From Candidatus Firestoneibacteriota bacterium (GTDB lineage Bacteria > Oederibacteriota > JAAXVQ01), in contig JAAXVQ010000025.1 of the NCBI GenBank assembly GCA_013335425.1, positions 1 to 12,192 of the forward strand: a stretch of 12,192 nucleotides of DNA. Direction: 5' to 3'. Shown here one piece after another: positions 1-11,774 of the stretch (its first letter is position 1; each line of letters opens with the position of its first letter). A program made the translations under genes and the position numbers. Under the pieces are notes generated by a model. It saw only the letters and a list, made by a program, of their open reading frames with translations. It was not told where the DNA came from and searched no databases.

Positions 1-633
1 CGGCTGAACAACTTTTTGAAAGGATATGGCGTCTTTCTGGCCTCCTATCCGGCTTCGACCGATATGGCCACGATCGGCGGCATGATTGCCAACAATGCCT
101 CCGGCGCGAACTCGTGCAAACTCGGCACGACCCAGCATCAGGTCCTGGATTTGCACATCGTCCTGGCGGATGGAACCGGCCTGTGGACCTCGGAGATCAA
201 ATCGGGCGAACAGCCCTGGAGCAAGATCACCGAACTCGTCCGGCTCAACAAAGAGGTGATATCGATCAGACTCGCCCAGGACATGCCCATGACTGTCAGT
301 TGCGGGATCGCCGAGTGTCTGCTCGACCGTGACGCCTCTCCTGGAGACCTGATGCGGCGCGCCGAGGCGGAACCGGTGCAGGCGGCGCTGGCGGCGCTGA
401 TGAGCGCCGATCCGGTCGCCCGCCGTCGCCGGCAGCAACTCGAACAGGGCTGCGATGCGCTCATCGCCGGCGAGCGTGGCGGTGGCCAAGAGGCCGGTAG
501 CCGAATTGCCGACGATCAGGCTGTCGCGGACCCAGCCCTTGGTCTCGGGTATGAAGCTCCAGAGCAGCACCCACAGGCCGGCCGGCGCTTCCTTAGCTCT
601 GCCGATCAGCAACTTAATCAGTGTGTGAAGTGA
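1..633 (+). pseudogene. Broken FAD-linked oxidase (GlcD/D-lactate dehydrogenase type) joined in frame to a GGDEF-like tail
   Basis: The frame is open from base 1, so the gene starts before the window. Bases 1 to about 255 encode part of a PCMH-type FAD-binding domain: the run TIGGMIANNASGANSCK followed by LDLHIVLADGTG is the classic FAD-pyrophosphate loop of FAD-linked oxidases related to D-lactate dehydrogenase and GlcD. The match is good until about LNKEVIS (near 261). There the oxidase would normally continue for several hundred residues with the rest of the FAD and substrate domains. Instead the frame runs into MTVSCGIAECL...ASPGDLMRRAEAE (bases 283-372), which resembles the last strands of a GGDEF diguanylate cyclase domain, without the GGDEF motif itself. 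After about 375 the sequence is low-complexity Ala/Arg/Gln and stops at 633. I read this as a non-functional mosaic made by recombination, or as a metagenome assembly join. The FAD identification is firm; the GGDEF identification is moderate. Confidence 0.6.
361..633 (-). other. Protein-like open minus-strand frame without a start or known match
   Basis: Reading the minus strand from 633, a frame stays open with a natural-looking composition: a hydrophobic start (GLWVLLWSFIPETKGWVR), then DSLIVGNSATGLLATATLAG and ERIAALFELLPATAGD. It looks more like real protein than the Arg/Gln-rich plus-strand frame over the same bases. No start codon with a ribosome site is visible and I do not recognise the family. 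It may be a third gene fragment in the mosaic that begins with the FAD oxidase, or it may be chance. Confidence 0.25.
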
Positions 634-648
634 GGGACGTTGTGTTTT

Positions 649-665
649 GGGGGACTCCGTCCCCC
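649..665. repeat. Short perfect palindrome, copy 1 (REP-like)
   Basis: GGGGGAC (649-655) and GTCCCCC (659-665) form a perfect 7-bp stem around a TCC loop. No T-run follows on either strand, so it is not a typical terminator. A close variant, GAGGGACTCCGCCCCCA on the minus strand at 8637-8653, matches it at 14 of 17 positions. Short GC-rich palindromes of this sort are often dispersed REP sequences. The rest of 634-768 holds no gene that I can support. Confidence 0.5.
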
Positions 666-768
666 ATCACGCACAAACATGAAGTCTTCAGTGGTACGGC
701 GCCAGGTACGAATTTTGACTGTCGGAGATGATCATACACGCCCCTCGCTTTACTCAATAAAGACGTAT

Positions 769-1134
769 TCAGCGACAGCCGGCCGAAAGTCCGGCAGCTC
801 CGGGCTTTCCTTTGTTTCTTTCCACGCTAAAATGAAGGCCTAAATACTCGAGAATGCGGGTAAGCGTGAAATACTCCGGCTTGCCGTGCTTTGAAAGCGT
901 GCGATAAAGTTGGGTGCGGTTTAATTTTGTTTCTTTCGATAAAGTGCCCACACCGCCGACGGCATCAATGACGTTACGCAAAGATAAAATCAGCGTTTGC
1001 GGATCGTCTGCTTGTAAGGATTCCTTGATATAGGCCTCACGAAAAGCCGGATCATTTTTCAACATTTGAATGACGGTTTTAATAAATGCGCTGCCTGCCG
1101 GATTCTTTGACCTTGATAATGTCTTAACTGCCAT
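769..1134 (-). CDS. HigA-type antitoxin with HTH domain (addiction module antidote family)
   Basis: A 121-residue protein of the putative addiction module antidote family (COG3636/TIGR02684 type). It would bind and neutralise the toxin encoded just upstream and repress the shared promoter. Residues 45-105 carry the family core: VIDAVGGVGTLSKETKLNR is the helix-turn-helix region, followed by YRTLSKHGKPEYFTLTRILEYLGLHFSV, which matches the usual family ending. The first 40 residues hold the typical DPAFREAYIKESL segment. After the core there is a short Gly/Ala-rich tail (GKPGAAGLSAGCR), whose DNA contains a GCCGG/CCGGC hairpin at 778-795, so the tail may be a late extension. The ATG at 1134 is preceded by AGGGGAAAG at good spacing, and the reading frame overlaps the toxin gene by 11 bases, so translation is probably coupled. 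Toxin-first order is typical of hig-like modules. Confidence 0.85.
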   Translation of the reverse strand: MAVKTLSRSKNPAGSAFIKTVIQMLKNDPAFREAYIKESLQADDPQTLILSLRNVIDAVGGVGTLSKETKLNRTQLYRTLSKHGKPEYFTLTRILEYLGLHFSVERNKGKPGAAGLSAGCR

Positions 1135-1483
1135 AACGACTTTCCCCTTCCTGCCTGCGCAACTTATAATCTGCCCCATATTTCTTCGCCAGTTTGACGT
1201 CCTCTTTTCGAGTGTGTTTCTCGCCACCATACGGCAGGATAACCAGAAATTTTCCATCCTGCCCCAAGTAGACTCGATAGCCGGGTCCAACCGGAACCTC
1301 CAGTTCAAGGACTCCCTCGCCAACCGCTTTACAGTCCCCCAAATTTCCGAATTGCGCCCGCTCAAGTTGTTTGGTAATCGCCACTTTGGCTTGCAGCTCG
1401 GTTAAATGGATTAACCACTCCACAAAAGGTTCGCGCCCTGCTTGCGTCTGATAATTTCTAATTTCTCTCGGAAAGGCTTCCAT
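1124..1483 (-). CDS. HigB/RelE-like toxin (addiction module killer protein family)
   Basis: A 119-residue protein of the COG3657/TIGR02683 group of the RelE/ParE superfamily. Relatives are small toxins, mostly ribosome-dependent mRNA interferases; the activity here is inferred. Seen in the sequence: an N-terminal helical half (residues 1-45), then RAQFGNLGDCK, GPGYRVY (66-72) and LPYGGEKHTRKEDVKLAKKY (83-102), all in the family's usual order and spacing. Nothing is truncated, so it looks intact. The ATG at 1483 is chosen because TAGGGGAAGAT lies immediately upstream; an in-frame TTG at 1501 is possible but has no ribosome site. It is the first gene of the pair and overlaps the antitoxin by 11 bases. 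The pair sits between a degraded oxidase fragment and a transposase remnant, a common setting for mobile toxin-antitoxin modules. Confidence 0.85.
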   Translation of the reverse strand: MEAFPREIRNYQTQAGREPFVEWLIHLTELQAKVAITKQLERAQFGNLGDCKAVGEGVLELEVPVGPGYRVYLGQDGKFLVILPYGGEKHTRKEDVKLAKKYGADYKLRRQEGESRYGS

Positions 1484-1510
1484 ATCTTCCCCTAAGCCCA
1501 AGATTATCGA

Positions 1511-7404: not shown

Positions 7405-7534
7405 GATTCCGCCTCTCTCGCCGAAACAATATTTTCTACAAATAAAAAACCTGGGTGTCGTCCGCTTTGAAAGCATAACAAAAAATCATTTAATACGCTG
7501 CTTATTTCCCACGCTACACTCGCTGAGTGCTTTG

Positions 7535-7605
7535 GGGGATGGCTTTCGGTTAATCGGCTACCGCATCTTGCAAAAACCTTAACCGACTATCCGAAAGCCG
7601 TCCCC
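7535..7605. repeat. Long imperfect hairpin repeat, copy A
   Basis: The left arm (7535-7560, starting GGGGATGGCTTTCGG) and right arm (7580-7605, ending CCGAAAGCCGTCCCC) can pair over 26 positions, with 22 standard pairs, around a 19-base loop. A second copy in the same orientation lies at 11676-11744. The right arm and its flanks are identical over 34 bases, and the left arm differs at only a few positions. Both copies sit between divergent genes and are followed by a shared CGCACA. Copy A lies 131 bases upstream of the beta-barrel gene and 113 bases upstream of the QW membrane protein gene. It may be a miniature mobile element, a REP-type sequence or a shared regulatory structure. Confidence 0.75.
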
Positions 7606-7717
7606 TTCTACCGCACAATAAGAACTCTCCACCCGGAACGGCCTTGATTCCAGTATATTTTCCACCATGATTATGCTAAACTATGTTGCGTTTCATTATA
7701 TCTTTATAAGGAATAGA

Positions 7718-8383
7718 ATGCTCCTTAAAAATATTGACAACCTCAAACAATGGTTTCGCTGGACCCTGGTTTGCGGTATAGGGGAGCTAGTGGGATTGGC
7801 TGTTGCTTCCATGATTGAATGGGTACTATGGGCAACTTTTGGGACATCACTATTCTTATTGCATGGACTGCTTTTTCTCGCGGTCGCAATAGGTGCCGGA
7901 TACCTGGAAGGGTGGCTTAGCGGATTTTGCCAATGGATCGTTTTGCAGGAACGGTTCCCCAGCATATCCCTGAAACCTTGGGTGCGAGCCAGCGGCTTCG
8001 GAGCTGCCATCGCCTGGTTTCTCGGGTCATTGCCTTCCATTGCTTTTGCATCCTTACCCGGTTTTAAATTCCCACCCATCATGCTTGTCTTCACCGCCAT
8101 TTTGGCCGGTATGATCCTGGGAGGAATCATAGGTTTATTCCAGTGGCGAGTTTTAAAAAATTACAGCCTCCATAGCGGGCTCTGGATTATCGGCAATGTT
8201 TTAGCCTGGCCAATAGGCACACTGATTATTTATATAGTTGCCAGAACCGCAAGCAGTAGCAGCGCCCCTATGCTGATATTCGGCTTAGGCGCTTTTTCCG
8301 GCTTAGCATCCGGCCTTGCCATTGGCGGTATTACAGGCTTGTTTTTTATTGCACTTAAACCCACCGGTTCAAAAATTAACTAG
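7718..8383 (+). CDS. Integral membrane protein with repeated G-x3-G-QW motifs
   Basis: A 221-residue protein with about six hydrophobic segments, no signal peptide and a short positively charged N-terminus. Two segments carry the same pattern: GYLEGWLSGFCQWIVL (61-76) and GMILGGIIGLFQWRVL (131-146), each followed some 12 residues later by a W and another glycine-rich helix (PWVRASGFGAAIAWFLG; LWIIGNVLAWPIG). A third helix (GLASGLAIGGITGLFFIAL, 195-213) has the glycines but not the QW. This points to an internal duplication of a two-helix unit, a pattern seen in several unnamed bacterial membrane proteins. The function is unknown. The ATG at 7718 is chosen for AAGGA five bases upstream; an in-frame ATG at 7667 has no such site. 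The 3' end overlaps the P-II remnant on the other strand by 8 bases. Confidence 0.75.
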   Translation: MLLKNIDNLKQWFRWTLVCGIGELVGLAVASMIEWVLWATFGTSLFLLHGLLFLAVAIGAGYLEGWLSGFCQWIVLQERFPSISLKPWVRASGFGAAIAWFLGSLPSIAFASLPGFKFPPIMLVFTAILAGMILGGIIGLFQWRVLKNYSLHSGLWIIGNVLAWPIGTLIIYIVARTASSSSAPMLIFGLGAFSGLASGLAIGGITGLFFIALKPTGSKIN

Positions 8384-8633
8384 CGCCTTCACCTTTTTCC
8401 CCGGTCCTGATACTATGCAATTCACGGATTTCATATACAACCACTTTACCATCACCCCTTCTACCAGTGTGCGCATGCTGCTTTATGGCATCGATAATCT
8501 TTTCGCATTCCTCATCAGAGCTTATAATTTCCAACTTCAGCTTGGGCGAGGCGTCAACCTGGTAATCCATTTCGTGATGGGGATAGCTTTCATCTTTTTC
8601 TCGGCCCAAACCTTTGATTTCTACCATGGACAT
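8376..8633 (-). pseudogene. N-terminally truncated P-II nitrogen regulator (GlnB/GlnK family)
   Basis: The 85-residue frame aligns with residues 28-112 of GlnB. It keeps VEIKGLGREK, a T-loop of the usual length with the Tyr51 position (MDYQVD), the B-loop TGRRGDGK, and the C-terminal IRTGEKGEGAS. P-II proteins are trimers that sense ATP/ADP and 2-oxoglutarate and control ammonium transport or nitrogen enzymes. The first 27 residues, which form strand 1 and helix 1 of the ferredoxin-like fold, are missing. The codons just upstream read through a GC-rich palindrome to a stop six codons before the first Met, and neither ATG (8633, 8627) has a ribosome site. Loss of the first strand should destroy the fold, so I call it a pseudogene, although the retained part is well conserved and the loss may be recent. 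Its 3' end overlaps the convergent membrane-protein gene by 8 bases. Confidence 0.75.
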
Positions 8634-8658
8634 GCTTGGGGGCGGAGTCCCTCAAAGC
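8634..8658. repeat. Short palindrome, copy 2, at the P-II break point
   Basis: GCTTGGGGG and CCCTCAAAGC can pair as an imperfect stem around CGGAGT. The minus-strand core GAGGGACTCCGCCCCC closely matches the palindrome at 649-665. It begins exactly where homology to P-II stops, so it may mark the event that removed the start of that gene. Bases 8659-8726 hold nothing else I can identify. Confidence 0.45.
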
Positions 8659-8726
8659 TCTTTCCATCCCTTTATTGCTCTTCCCCCGCAGTCCTCCCTC
8701 AAAACGAAGTTGCACGTTATTAAATC

Positions 8727-8754
8727 TTGAACTATATTTATTCGGTATTATAAA
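8727..8754 (+). promoter_or_regulatory. Sigma-70-type promoter of the beta-helix gene
   Basis: TTGAAC (8727-8732), a 16-base AT-rich spacer and TATAAA (8749-8754) give a good -35/-10 pair. Transcription would start near 8761, leaving a short leader of about 16 bases before the ATG at 8777. An alternative TTGCAC lies at 8710. Confidence 0.5.
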
Positions 8755-8776
8755 AGTACTTTTCGACGAGGCGATG

Positions 8777-10957
8777 ATGAGCAACGAAACAGACCGTAGG
8801 ATTACGGTGCGACGCACGTTTTTGATCTTCATTCAGATCGGGTGGCTATGCTTCAACCTGGCCATCCGTGCATCCGCGGCTACCTGGACCGTCACGAGCA
8901 CGGCTGACAGCGGCGCCGGAACGTTACGCCAGCAAATCGCCAACGCGGGCAACGGAGATATCATCGATTTCAACCTTACCTACCCGGCCACCATCACGTT
9001 AGCCTCGACCCTTGCGATCAACAAATCGCTTACCCTCGCCGGCCCCGGCGCGGCCAATCTCACCGTGAGCGGAAACAATGCCTGCCGGGTATTCGACTTG
9101 ACCGGCGGGCTGACCACGATTGCGATTTCGGGCCTGACTGTGGCCAATGGCCGGGTAGACGGCAACGGTGCAGGGATCCAGTTGGGGGGCGCCCTTACGG
9201 TTACGCTCGACCGCTGTACTTTCGCCAATAACGCTTGTGTCAGCAGCACCAAAAACACCTACGGCGGAGCGGTGTATTTTCCCGCGGGTGCCACCCTGAA
9301 AATCTTCCGCTCGAATTTCTCCGGCAACTCGGCTGCCACCTACTATGGTTCCGGAGGCGGGGCGATCTACGTGCAAGGCAGCGGACTGGTCATGACGGAC
9401 TGTGCCCTGTGGAACAACAGCGCAGTCATTGCAGGAGCCATCATGGACTATACCCGAACCGGCAACACCACCCAACTGGTCAACTGTACTGTCACCGGGA
9501 ACCATGGCGCCTATTACGGCGCGGTGTACAAAGAGGATTACGGCACGATGATCCTCACGAACTGCGTGATCACGGGAAACACTTCCGACTACTTCGCGCC
9601 AGGTCTTTACGCCACCTATGGATCATTGAACATGCGAAACACGGTGATCACCGGCAACACCACCCCCGAACCCGGCGGTGTCGGAATGGATGTCTACTTG
9701 TATTCCATTACCTTCACCTCGGGCGGTTACAATATAACCGGCGACGGCGGCTCGGCCTGGACCACCGGAGACGTGGCGGGGATCACGAACCCCGGTTTGG
9801 ACACGTTGGCGAATAACGGCGGATGGGTGCGCGCGTGCCTGCCGCAAGCCGCCAGCCTGGTGCTCGATCCGGCTGACAGCAATAACGCCCCTTTTGTAGA
9901 CAGCCGCGGCTACCTTCGCTCCGGGACAGCGGATCGGGGGAGCTGCGAACGATCCGCTGTTCCGCCTGTGGCTGATCCTGCCGGCACTATTACGCTCACG
10001 TCCTTCAATGCCAATTGGGAGAGCGTGCCGGGCGCCACGGGATACTTGCTCGATGTCGCCACGAATGCCGCTTTCACCACATGGGTAACGGGCTACCGGG
10101 ATCTGGATGTGGGCAATGTGCTCACCTATCCCGTAAACGGGTTGACCACCGGAGCGACCTATTATTACCGGGTGCGGGGAACCAATGGAAATCAGCAGAC
10201 CTACTACACAAACACGGTCTCCTGTGTGCCCATGTACCTTTCGCCCACCCGGACTGCGACCCTCACGCCGACTTCCACACCGAGCCCCACGATCACCGCG
10301 ACACCCACCTCGACGCCCACGGGAACCGCGAGCATGACCCCCACGCAGACCGCATCCCCGACGGTCACGCTCACCTCCAGCGAAACCCCAACTCAAACCT
10401 TTACGCCCACCGTCAGCGACACGGCGACGCCGACGTCCACATTCACGGGAACCGCAAGTACAACCCCCACGCAGACCGCAACCCTGACACTTACACTCAC
10501 GTCCAGCGAAACACCAACCCTGACCTTCACGACCACCGCCAGCAGCACACCGACTCCCACACTCACCGCCAACGGGATTTCGACTCAGACCCCCACGTCT
10601 ACGGTCACCCCCACCCTCGGGATGACACCCTCGGCAACAGCATTCTCCACTCTGACACCCACGGTCACCGCGACCCGGACCCCTGATCCGAAAGACAATT
10701 TCGAAGGCTTCCGAGCCTACCCCAATCCGGCCCGGCAGAGTTTGCGTTTCCGTTTCCGCTTGAAACAGCCCGGTGCGGTACGGATTTCCATCTACAATAT
10801 CACCGGAGAACGAATTGCCGATCTCTCCAGTCATCTGCCGTCCGGAACCAACGATCTTATCTGGAATTGCCGGGACGTTGCCCCGGGAATTTACCTGGCC
10901 CGAATGCAAGCCGAAGGGAACGGGAACCAGCAGATCAAGATCGCAGTAATGAAATAA
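8777..10957 (+). CDS. Secreted right-handed beta-helix protein with Thr/Pro stalk and YPNP-type C-terminal domain
   Basis: A 726-residue exported protein. Domains: signal peptide (about 10-35, core FLIFIQIGWLCFNLAI, cleavage near ASA); a parallel beta-helix domain (36-390) opening with the familiar TWTVTSTADSGAGTLRQQI and then repeated turns such as GGAIYVQGSGLVMTDCALWN and MILTNCVITGN, as in polymorphic-membrane-protein/pectate-lyase-like folds; a fibronectin-III-like domain (about 396-486, TYYYRVRGTN); a Thr/Pro-rich stalk (489-637); and a C-terminal domain (642-726) with FRAYPNPAR, IYNITGERIADL and APGIYLARM. This last unit resembles FlgD-Ig/type IX secretion sorting domains, so surface attachment or secretion is likely. 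No catalytic residues can be assigned; an adhesin or polysaccharide-binding role is inferred. The second ATG of a tandem pair (8777) is chosen because GAGG lies five bases before it. It has its own promoter and converges with the lipoprotein gene. The 100-base gap after it holds no clear terminator. Confidence 0.85.
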   Translation: MSNETDRRITVRRTFLIFIQIGWLCFNLAIRASAATWTVTSTADSGAGTLRQQIANAGNGDIIDFNLTYPATITLASTLAINKSLTLAGPGAANLTVSGNNACRVFDLTGGLTTIAISGLTVANGRVDGNGAGIQLGGALTVTLDRCTFANNACVSSTKNTYGGAVYFPAGATLKIFRSNFSGNSAATYYGSGGGAIYVQGSGLVMTDCALWNNSAVIAGAIMDYTRTGNTTQLVNCTVTGNHGAYYGAVYKEDYGTMILTNCVITGNTSDYFAPGLYATYGSLNMRNTVITGNTTPEPGGVGMDVYLYSITFTSGGYNITGDGGSAWTTGDVAGITNPGLDTLANNGGWVRACLPQAASLVLDPADSNNAPFVDSRGYLRSGTADRGSCERSAVPPVADPAGTITLTSFNANWESVPGATGYLLDVATNAAFTTWVTGYRDLDVGNVLTYPVNGLTTGATYYYRVRGTNGNQQTYYTNTVSCVPMYLSPTRTATLTPTSTPSPTITATPTSTPTGTASMTPTQTASPTVTLTSSETPTQTFTPTVSDTATPTSTFTGTASTTPTQTATLTLTLTSSETPTLTFTTTASSTPTPTLTANGISTQTPTSTVTPTLGMTPSATAFSTLTPTVTATRTPDPKDNFEGFRAYPNPARQSLRFRFRLKQPGAVRISIYNITGERIADLSSHLPSGTNDLIWNCRDVAPGIYLARMQAEGNGNQQIKIAVMK
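10319..10570 (+). repeat. Tandem 126-bp repeat in the Thr/Pro stalk
   Basis: Two in-frame copies of a 42-residue unit begin at 10319 (TGTASMTPTQTASPTVTL) and 10445 (TGTASTTPTQTATLTLTL). Both continue with TSSETPTxTFT at the same offset. The DNA is similar enough to show recent duplication. Such units change the length of a surface stalk through recombination or slippage. Confidence 0.7.
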
Positions 10958-11057
10958 CGGTTCCCCGAAAGGTGCCCGCCACTGCTTTATGCAAATATTG
11001 ACATGACCCAGAAGCAAAAGGACGATTTGAAAGACTCAGAGGGAGATGCTGGCCAAA

Positions 11058-11597
11058 TCAGTCGGATAAAACGCGCCCGGTTTTGTCGATTTCCTTCCAT
11101 TGACCGCCTAGGATTTTCTGATGCTCGCCGTCTTGGATCAGCGTGCAGCCCCAACCCACTCTCGCTTTTCCCTGTCGAAAGGGATACGCAAAGTCAAATT
11201 GCGGTTGAATCACCACTCGGCCGCGTTCGTCAAAAAAACCGAACTTTCCGTCCCGGACAAACCTCGCCAAGCCGTCCACAAAATAGTCGGGGCCATTGTC
11301 AAACATGTAGGGGCGGATCACTTCCTCGCCCTTGGAATTGACGAGCACCCAGCCCTGGCCGTCAAGCGCCGCCGCTAGACCGTGACGGGTAAATTCGGTG
11401 ACGGTCCGAAAACGGGCGGGAATGACGGTTTGGCCGTCTCCACTTTTAAAGCCCCAGAGTCCATCCTGTTCAAACGGCGCCCAGGTTTCAACTGCCGACC
11501 TGGGGCCGCGCGCCGACGGACGAGTTTGAACAGTCTGGCAGGCCGTGATTAAGACGAAACAAAGCGGCAAGACCATCCAGCGAGAGTTCACACCCAT
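11058..11597 (-). CDS. WG-repeat lipoprotein
   Basis: A 179-residue lipoprotein. The signal peptide MGVNSRWMVLPLCFVLITAC ends in a lipobox with Cys20, and Gln21 is compatible with sorting to the outer membrane. The mature part has about three WG/KWG-type repeats: near 44-79 (DGLWGFKSGDGQTVIPARF), 80-115 (GQGWVLVNSKGEEVIRPYMF) and 116-149 (DGKFGFFDERGRVVIQPQFD). Each has the pattern G-x-W/F-G-F, a short turn, then V-I-x-P-x-F. WG repeats form small beta units in many bacterial surface or periplasmic proteins; their partners are mostly unknown. The ATG at 11597 has AGGAG six bases upstream, a strong site. It converges with the beta-helix gene (100-base gap) and diverges from the partial membrane-protein gene. 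Confidence 0.8.
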   Translation of the reverse strand: MGVNSRWMVLPLCFVLITACQTVQTRPSARGPRSAVETWAPFEQDGLWGFKSGDGQTVIPARFRTVTEFTRHGLAAALDGQGWVLVNSKGEEVIRPYMFDNGPDYFVDGLARFVRDGKFGFFDERGRVVIQPQFDFAYPFRQGKARVGWGCTLIQDGEHQKILGGQWKEIDKTGRVLSD

Positions 11598-11675
11598 TGC
11601 GTTCTCCTGAGCATCTGCGTTCCTCCCCAGCTTGGCCGGGTGGCTGTGGATACTTTGTTGTAATAGTGTCTTGAA

Positions 11676-11744
11676 GGACGGCTTTCGATTAATCGGTTAC
11701 CGTATCTTTTATAAACCTTAACCGACTATCCGAAAGCCGTCCCC
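11676..11744. repeat. Long imperfect hairpin repeat, copy B
   Basis: Second copy of the element at 7535-7605, in the same orientation. The left arm starts GGACGGCTTTCGATTAATCG and the right arm ends CCGAAAGCCGTCCCC; about 21 of 26 arm positions pair and the loop is again 19 bases. It lies 79 bases upstream of the lipoprotein gene and 152 bases upstream of the partial membrane-protein gene, again in a divergent intergenic region. The surrounding genes are unrelated to those around copy A. Confidence 0.75.
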
Positions 11745-11774
11745 TTATACGCACATTTTTTTGCAACTAGCCAT

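What the first reader, a model, noticed from the sequence alone, without database searches (positions are those of the whole stretch)
7535..11744. A ~70-base hairpin repeated in two divergent intergenic regions
The elements at 7535-7605 and 11676-11744 share 34 identical bases over the right arm and its flanks, the same 19-base loop length, the same orientation and a following CGCACA. Each lies between two divergent genes, where a transcription terminator is not expected. The gene pairs around them are unrelated. This could be a miniature mobile element, a REP family served by a distant transposase, or a structure that links expression of several surface and membrane genes. Left-arm changes are all transitions and are not compensated, which argues against strict selection on pairing.
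Basis: partly seen in the sequence, partly recalled or inferred. Interest (0 to 1): 0.7.

Follow-up and report, generated by a model that had tools for sequence, protein, structure and literature searches.

The report
Transposon ends stripped to a hairpin
The two repeated hairpins are most likely gene-less relics of a small bacterial transposon whose two ends mirror each other, a known kind of mobile DNA seen here in little-studied bacteria, and not a special control switch.

Summary
In detail: two ~70-base hairpins (7535-7605, 11676-11744), 86% identical over 86 bases, lie between divergent genes. They are best read as miniature non-autonomous elements made of the two terminal inverted repeats (TIRs) of a Y1 (HUH, IS200-like) transposon. 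In a genome of the same order the same 23-base arms bound a 1,110-bp element around a 331-aa Y1 transposase whose stop codon lies inside the right TIR. Another relative holds a natural internal-deletion derivative joined at a 7-base microhomology. The window's draft genome (84% complete) has a third hairpin, a lone arm and two shortened forms, some after stop codons or between converging ORFs, so a divergent-promoter preference is not supported; no cognate transposase was found there. The parent fits the published TIRtrons/TIRYTs: 81 of 95 loci tested show TIRs, against 7 of 185 mismatched pairs. By-product: TIRs carry tandem direct repeats, period 8 (GGGGAC class) or 7 (GGGGTC class), beside a DnaA-like C-terminal domain in many members. 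Mobility of the window copies is inferred, not shown.

The parts
7526..7617 (-). Mini-element W1: hairpin plus the flanks it shares with W2 (AGTGCTTTG on the left, TTCTACCGCACA on the right). Minus strand is read as the transposon sense strand.
7580..7605 (-). W1 left-end (LE) TIR arm, GGGGACGGCTTTCGGATAGTCGGTTA on the minus strand; GGTAG stands two bases outside it
   Evidence: 2 mismatches in 23 to the TIR of the G002 transposon
7561..7579 (-). W1 19-nt loop; with the arm it reads F L Q D A V A D stop on the minus strand, comparable with the C-terminal end of the G002 transposase (F A Q G K A L T D stop). Suggestive only.
7535..7560 (-). W1 right-end (RE) TIR arm
   Evidence: 1 mismatch in 23 to the TIR
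11665..11755 (-). Mini-element W2: hairpin plus shared flanks (AGTGTCTTG / TTATACGCACA)
11719..11744 (-). W2 left-end TIR arm, identical to that of W1
11674..11699 (-). W2 right-end TIR arm
   Evidence: 3 mismatches in 23 to the TIR
642..675 (.). Shortened relative: GTGTTTTGGGGGACTCCGTCCCCCATCACGCACA, same type of outer flanks as W1/W2 but almost no arm interior; between an ORF ending at 633 (+) and ORFs on the minus strand ending at 769
   Evidence: assignment to the same element type is inference from the flanks

Best explanation
The two hairpins are copies of one miniature, gene-less element: the left and right TIRs of a Y1/HUH transposon (TIRtron; transposase of the TIRYT / TnpA-REP subclass 2.1 type) brought within 19 bases of each other by an internal deletion, and then spread. 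Shown here: the same arms bound a complete transposon in a relative; a deletion derivative with a 7-base microhomology junction exists in another relative; further copies lie elsewhere in the own genome. Inferred: that the window copies moved by the action of such a transposase supplied in trans on single-stranded DNA, as in the IS200/IS605 and REP systems; that the supplying transposase has been lost, or lies in the missing ~16% of the genome; that the copies have no dedicated regulatory role.
For: Arms: GGGGACGGCTTTCGGTTAATCGG occurs with 0 mismatches at both ends, inverted, of G002:C8:77584-78693, around a Y1_Tnp ORF with no stops inside; the contig has the same length and letters as JAUVAV010000005.1, titled candidate division FCPU426 bacterium. 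The ORF's stop codon lies inside the right TIR. Deletion derivative: G006:C18 joins 21 nt of the left end to the last 127 nt of the same element with GGATAAG shared at the junction; G006:C315 carries a second, larger internal deletion. Copies in the own genome besides W1/W2: hairpin C4:3012-3087 (E 1.1e-7), lone arm C4:1617-1646, shortened forms C232:642-675 and C344:1428-. A second hairpin family in the same genome, C204:3040-3135, has arms like the TIRs of the G003 transposon. General test: 81 of 95 loci with full or near-full transposase ORFs have a TIR score of 15 or more, against 7 of 185 mismatched up/down pairs, and in at least the top case of these the two loci are close relatives.
Against: No transposase of this type was found in the own genome (0 matches at E <= 1e-20; its one Y1_Tnp, on C491, has no TIR above threshold). 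No empty site could be compared: the neighbours' orthologues (2 of 8 relatives in total, G007 and G003) stand in other surroundings. W1 and W2 share short flanks on both sides outside the arms, which a simple cut at the arm ends would not give; either the moved unit is larger than the arms or the copies arose by another route, such as local duplication. The loop/C-terminus match rests on a few codons. Copy number is low.
Confidence: 0.88

Rival explanations
1. A regulatory hairpin (DNA or RNA) selected to couple expression of the divergent genes on either side, spread by duplication for that purpose.
For: Both window copies lie between divergent ORFs; the stems are far more stable than shuffles; one double change keeps a pair between C4 and the window copies.
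Against: Other copies follow stop codons or lie between converging ORFs; no Rfam family matches at the gathering threshold; promoter-like matches are at about chance level in one region (1 found, shuffle mean 0.8) and slightly above in the other (1, mean 0.3), and no terminator-like site was found in either; the arms are transposon ends. Five arm differences between the two copies do not look like strict conservation.
Confidence: 0.05
2. A bona fide REP/REPIN of the GTAG superfamily mobilised by a RAYT, rather than a TIR element.
For: GGTAG stands immediately outside the left end in 4 of 4 intact-head left ends of this TIR family in G002, G005 and G006, in 0 of 4 right ends, and two bases outside the left-end arm in W1; the transposase scores 78.3 bits on the NCBIfam REP-associated model.
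Against: W2 reads GTAT there; the C4 copy lacks GTAG; over the wider set GTAG plus head occurs at 6 left and 1 right ends of 81, so it is no general tag. Each arm alone is not a hairpin; the fold needs both arms. The NCBIfam score is just under the cut-off of 80.
Confidence: 0.05
3. W1 and W2 are a local duplication of one non-mobile inverted repeat (they are 4.1 kb apart on one contig), with no transposition.
For: They share flanks outside the arms and the same loop.
Against: Similarity stops a few bases outside the arms; further copies lie on other contigs; the arms recur as ends of complete transposons in other genomes.
Confidence: 0.1

Closest known systems
TIRtrons, TIRYT transposases and their TIR repeat families (Di Nocera et al. 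2013, PMC3733652)
   Same: Y1/HUH transposase gene bounded by long TIRs starting with a G-run (their consensus GGGGWSAS); TIR copies also dispersed in the genome as singles, dimers or groups (section 16, read).
   Different: Head here is GGGGACGG, one letter off their consensus; host lineage (FCPU426 / Firestonebacteria-titled MAGs) is not one named in the sections I read; internal-deletion derivatives with a junction are documented here.
TnpA-REP subclass 2.1 with C-terminal Bac_DnaA_C / HTH_23 / HTH_28 domain (Quentin et al. 2018, PMC6006769)
   Same: Y1 domain with C-terminal helix-turn-helix; no typical REP hairpins next to the gene (section 20, read).
   Different: They left open what the C-terminal domain reads; the tandem 7/8-base repeats in the TIRs reported here were not mentioned in the passages I saw.
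REPINs / BIMEs (REP doublets) and RAYTs
   Same: Two inverted arms folding into one hairpin, non-autonomous, presumed to be served by a Y1 transposase in trans.
   Different: Arms are transposon TIRs without an own hairpin; few copies; no general GTAG tag. (Definition recalled and from the abstracts and listings.)
MITEs
   Same: Short, gene-less, TIR-bounded derivatives of a larger transposon.
   Different: MITEs in the usual sense (recalled) come from DDE transposons and carry target-site duplications; none was seen here by eye, and Y1 enzymes are not expected to make them.

Membership tests
Y1 / HUH transposase (PF01797) for the parent element | Y1_Tnp domain above Pfam's cut-off | tested here: met
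   G002 protein 46.2 bits, cut-off 23; 70 of 70 proteins of the two TIR classes match at E <= 0.1 (19 of 19; 51 of 51)
Y1 / HUH transposase (PF01797) for the parent element | HUH motif and catalytic tyrosine | tested here: met
   H59, H61 and Y118 invariant in 19 of 19; H58, H60 and Y117 invariant in 51 of 51; assignment of the roles is recalled
TIRtron (Di Nocera 2013) | Transposase gene bounded by long TIRs | tested here: met
   G002:C8 element, 23 of 23 identical; 81 of 95 loci at score >= 15, 7 of 185 controls
TIRtron (Di Nocera 2013) | TIR motif GGGGWSAS | tested here: inconclusive
   This family reads GGGGACGG, 7 of 8 letters; the paper says that only some TIRs share the motif
TnpA-REP subclass 2.1 | C-terminal Bac_DnaA_C / HTH_23 / HTH_28-like domain | tested here: met
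   G002 protein: Bac_DnaA_C E 0.0024, 18.3 bits, under the cut-off of 31.5; DnaA models E 5e-4 and 3e-3. At E <= 0.1, Bac_DnaA_C in 12 of 19 and 36 of 51. A weak but consistent match
TnpA-REP subclass 2.1 | Place in the published protein tree | not tested
   The published sequences were not held
GTAG REP / REPIN | GTAG tag at one end | tested here: inconclusive
   Present in W1 (two bases out), absent in W2 (GTAT) and C4; 4 of 4 intact left ends in relatives; 6 left and 1 right of 81 overall
GTAG REP / REPIN | High copy number (usually over 100 per genome, abstract of PMC2817692) | tested here: not met
   Five double-sided copies and one lone arm found in an 84% complete draft
Miniature mobile element (MITE-like, non-autonomous) | Both ends of an autonomous element, no gene, several dispersed copies | tested here: met
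Miniature mobile element (MITE-like, non-autonomous) | Observed transposition or an occupied/empty site pair | not testable with these tools
   No closely related strain; flanking synteny not conserved

The most novel reading that the evidence does not exclude
The TIRs of these Y1 transposons are built like a miniature replication origin: a GGGGWC head where the Y1 domain nicks, followed by two tandem 7- or 8-base units (iteron-like) that are read by the DnaA-like C-terminal domain; the window hairpins are such ends with the gene removed. This would answer what the unexplained C-terminal domain of TnpA-REP subclass 2.1 recognises and would link these transposases mechanically to iteron/HUH replication initiators.
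Probability: 0.25. Interest if true: 0.65.

Novelty: new member of a known kind. Interest (0 to 1): 0.38.

Why it matters
It turns a puzzling hairpin pair into an identified mobile element with a known parent, and extends TIRtron-type Y1 transposons and their gene-less derivatives to a candidate lineage without cultured members that I know of (recalled). The microhomology-joined derivative shows how such hairpins can be born. The tandem 7/8-base repeats give the first concrete candidate, among the passages I read, for what the DnaA-like domain of these transposases binds, which can be tested with purified protein.

Tried and rejected
Rfam at gathering thresholds: 0 matches in the window. Plasmids (distant blastn of 7526-7619): none. 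Viral contigs, exact arm pattern: none; phage records were not searched. Empty sites: neighbours' orthologues found in only 2 of 8 relatives in all and in other surroundings. PDB by sequence: no match for the transposase at E <= 0.001; no fold was predicted. A general GTAG tag at left ends: 6 left, 1 right of 81; TAG 20 left, 10 right of 81; no base before the head is clearly conserved, so I dropped it as a rule. A preference for divergent promoters: dropped. Terminator reading: no terminator-like site at either place. The C474:217 and G104:C46 look-alikes have one arm-like stretch without a partner and were set aside as probable chance; so were most TGGGGGACGG hits, whose count, 20 against 10 for the reversed pattern, is only a twofold excess. 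C88:3879 likewise.

Choices before counts: one search used 96 loci, picked by hand from the matches for full or near-full ORFs; 13 of the 49 loci that those two calls fetched were left out as cut or broken (7 of 30 and 6 of 19), 60 more were fetched, and one (L101) fell out for want of a stop. One search used the 70 of 81 TIRs with a GG(G)GWC-type head (19 A, 51 T), collapsed at 75% identity to 16 and 30. In the GGGGTC class the period is a pooled effect: the best lag is 7 in only 7 of 30, against 8 in 9 of 16 for the GGGGAC class.

Full report
What is in the window. Two hairpins, 7535-7605 and 11676-11744, with 26- and 24-nt arms and 19-nt loops, are 86% identical over 86 bases and share a 34-base identical run. 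Each folds better than 200 of 200 dinucleotide shuffles (z -5.3, -5.8). Similarity extends a little beyond the arms, to AGTGYYTTG on the left and a CGCACA-ending stretch on the right (units 7526-7617 and 11665-11755). Both lie between divergent ORFs. Within the left arm the five differences are all transitions.

Other copies in the same genome. The window is contig C232 of a 2.59-Mb draft in 525 contigs, 84% complete. A blast-type search with 88 bases found W1, W2, a third full hairpin at C4:3012-3087 (73% over most of the query, E 1.1e-7) and a lone arm at C4:1617-1646; the remaining hits are reverse readings of these or weak (E 0.37 or worse). Pattern searches added two shortened forms with the same kind of outer flanks, C232:642-675 and C344:1428 onward. 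Their places: W1 and W2 divergent; C4:3012 44 bases after the stop of a + ORF and before another + ORF; C344:1428 30 bases after the stop of a Fic-family ORF and before another + ORF; C232:642 between a + ORF ending at 633 and minus-strand ORFs ending at 769. So two of five are divergent, which does not support a preferred divergent position; five is too few for statistics.

The parent element. With up to 2 mismatches the arm pattern occurs in 5 of 145 genomes: the own one, three of the same order (G002, G005, G006) and, weakly, one distant genome (G104). In G002 it occurs twice, inverted, with 0 mismatches over 23 bases, 1,110 bp from end to end, around one ORF. The ORF (331 aa from the methionine-alanine-arginine start used here; 344 aa from an upstream GTG) is a Y1_Tnp protein (46.2 bits, cut-off 23), scores 78.3 bits on NCBIfam's REP-associated tyrosine transposase model (cut-off 80, so just under) and touches DnaA models at its C-terminal end. 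Its stop codon lies within the right TIR. G005 and G006 hold remnants: left or right ends with pieces of the gene.

How the small form arises. G006:C18 carries a derivative in which 21 nt of the left end run into the last 127 nt of the element (95% identical to G002), with GGATAAG present at both parental sites and once at the junction: a deletion between 7-base direct repeats. Its own outer left head is missing. G006:C315 has another internal deletion. The window hairpins go further: left end, then about eight codons and the right end. On the minus strand the loop and arm read F-L-Q-D-A-V-A-D-stop (W1) and F-I-K-D-T-V-T-D-stop (W2), against F-A-Q-G-K-A-L-T-D-stop at the end of the G002 transposase; the last codons are the TIR itself, so this is only suggestive. 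The same genome has a second hairpin, C204:3040-3135, whose arms resemble the TIRs of a Y1 transposon in G003.

Is the parent type real in general? Of 384 genomes searched, 85 have a relative at E <= 1e-25. Of 96 loci picked by hand for full or near-full ORFs, 95 could be tested; 81 have an inverted repeat of score 15 or more between the 300 bases before the gene and the stretch from 60 before to 250 after its stop, against 7 of 185 pairs taken from different genomes, and two of those seven are the same pair of close relatives drawn twice. In 53 of 81 the stop codon lies inside the right TIR, and the median element is 1,047 bp. Most heads are GGGGWC-like: 19 with A, 51 with T, 11 without such a head. 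The HUH histidines and the tyrosine are invariant in 19 of 19 and 51 of 51 proteins. A Bac_DnaA_C match at E <= 0.1 is found in 12 of 19 and 36 of 51, many presumably under the curated cut-off, as for the G002 protein (18.3 against 31.5).

Mechanism. Best reading: a Y1 transposase supplied in trans acted on single-stranded DNA of these ends, as is established for IS200/IS605 elements and proposed for REPs (recalled, and PMC3733652 and PMC6006769 as far as read). In this reading the hairpin forms between the two ends rather than within each. No such transposase was found in the own draft (0 at E <= 1e-20; its single Y1_Tnp on C491 has no TIR above threshold). Whether it was lost or lies in the missing part cannot be told. 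GGTAG stands just outside the left end in 4 of 4 intact-head left ends of this family and 0 of 4 right ends, and two bases outside in W1, which recalls the GTAG tag of REPs; but W2 and C4 lack it and the wider set shows it at 6 left and 1 right ends of 81, so I do not treat it as a rule.

A by-product. Within the TIRs, after the head, bases repeat at a spacing of 8 in the GGGGAC class (16 non-redundant TIRs: 0.547 against 0.277 in shuffles, 0 of 2000 reach it) and of 7 in the GGGGTC class (30: 0.392 against 0.259, 0 of 2000; spacing 8 is also slightly raised, 62 of 2000); 20-base stretches just inside and just outside show nothing. In the GGGGTC class the effect is pooled rather than visible in each TIR. 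The G002 end (CGGTTAAT CGGATA) and the window arms show it too (7, 7, 7 and 6 of 12 positions). Two papers on these transposases do not mention it in the passages found with 'direct repeat', 'tandem' and 'iteron'; a library search with related terms listed 20 of 23 papers, of which I read only the listing. The TIR figure of PMC3733652 is not held.

Known or new. The parent type was named TIRtron/TIRYT by Di Nocera et al. 2013 (PMC3733652; I read the abstract, section 16, the first part of section 17 and passages) and corresponds mostly to TnpA-REP subclass 2.1 of Quentin et al. 2018 (PMC6006769; section 20 and passages). Dispersed TIR copies, dimers included, were already reported there. So the hairpins are a new member of a known kind; the derivative with a microhomology junction and the tandem repeats are additions. 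'TIRYT' is found in 2 and 'TIRtron' in 1 of the held papers.

Noticed in passing
G000:C204:3040-3135 (L084:1501-1596); single arms at C4:3178-3187 and C318:40 and 197: A second hairpin mini-element family in the same genome, arms TGGGGGACGGAGTTAGTTTATTAGTTT-like, matching the TIRs of a Y1 transposon in G003 (L043).
   Followed up: partly
TIRs of Y1 transposons in 46 non-redundant loci: Tandem direct repeats inside the TIRs, period 8 in the GGGGAC class and 7 in the GGGGTC class, absent just inside and outside.
   Followed up: partly
L038:351-488 (G006:C18): Natural internal-deletion derivative of the transposon with a 7-base microhomology junction (GGATAAG); it still holds a short in-frame ORF of the transposase C-terminal end (366-497, minus strand).
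   Followed up: yes
window 769-1501, minus strand: Toxin-antitoxin-like pair: the 772-1365 ORF matches an addiction-module antidote family (PF21716); the upstream small ORF 1124-1501 has no Pfam match but reads like a RelE/HigB-type toxin (recalled).
   Followed up: partly
window 16-633: ORF at the contig start matches a FAD-binding domain in residues 4-58 only and weakly another family after that: perhaps a remnant or a frame change.
   Followed up: no
window 8636-10957 and L084:1-858: Secreted proteins with a Thr/Pro-rich repeat stalk; the window one has a right-handed beta-helix and a Por_Secre_tail domain; the C204 one ends in a similar C-terminal stretch.
   Followed up: no
G000:C491:822-1463 (L014): The only Y1_Tnp found in the own genome; no TIR above threshold, but a GGTGCCAGGCACA-type repeat stands upstream.
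   Followed up: partly
L059 (G012:C7) and L060 (G023:C65): TIRs that are themselves near-perfect palindromes (TAAACGCCCTGTCTGGGGTCTGACCCCAGACAGGGCGTTTA), unlike most others in the set.
   Followed up: no
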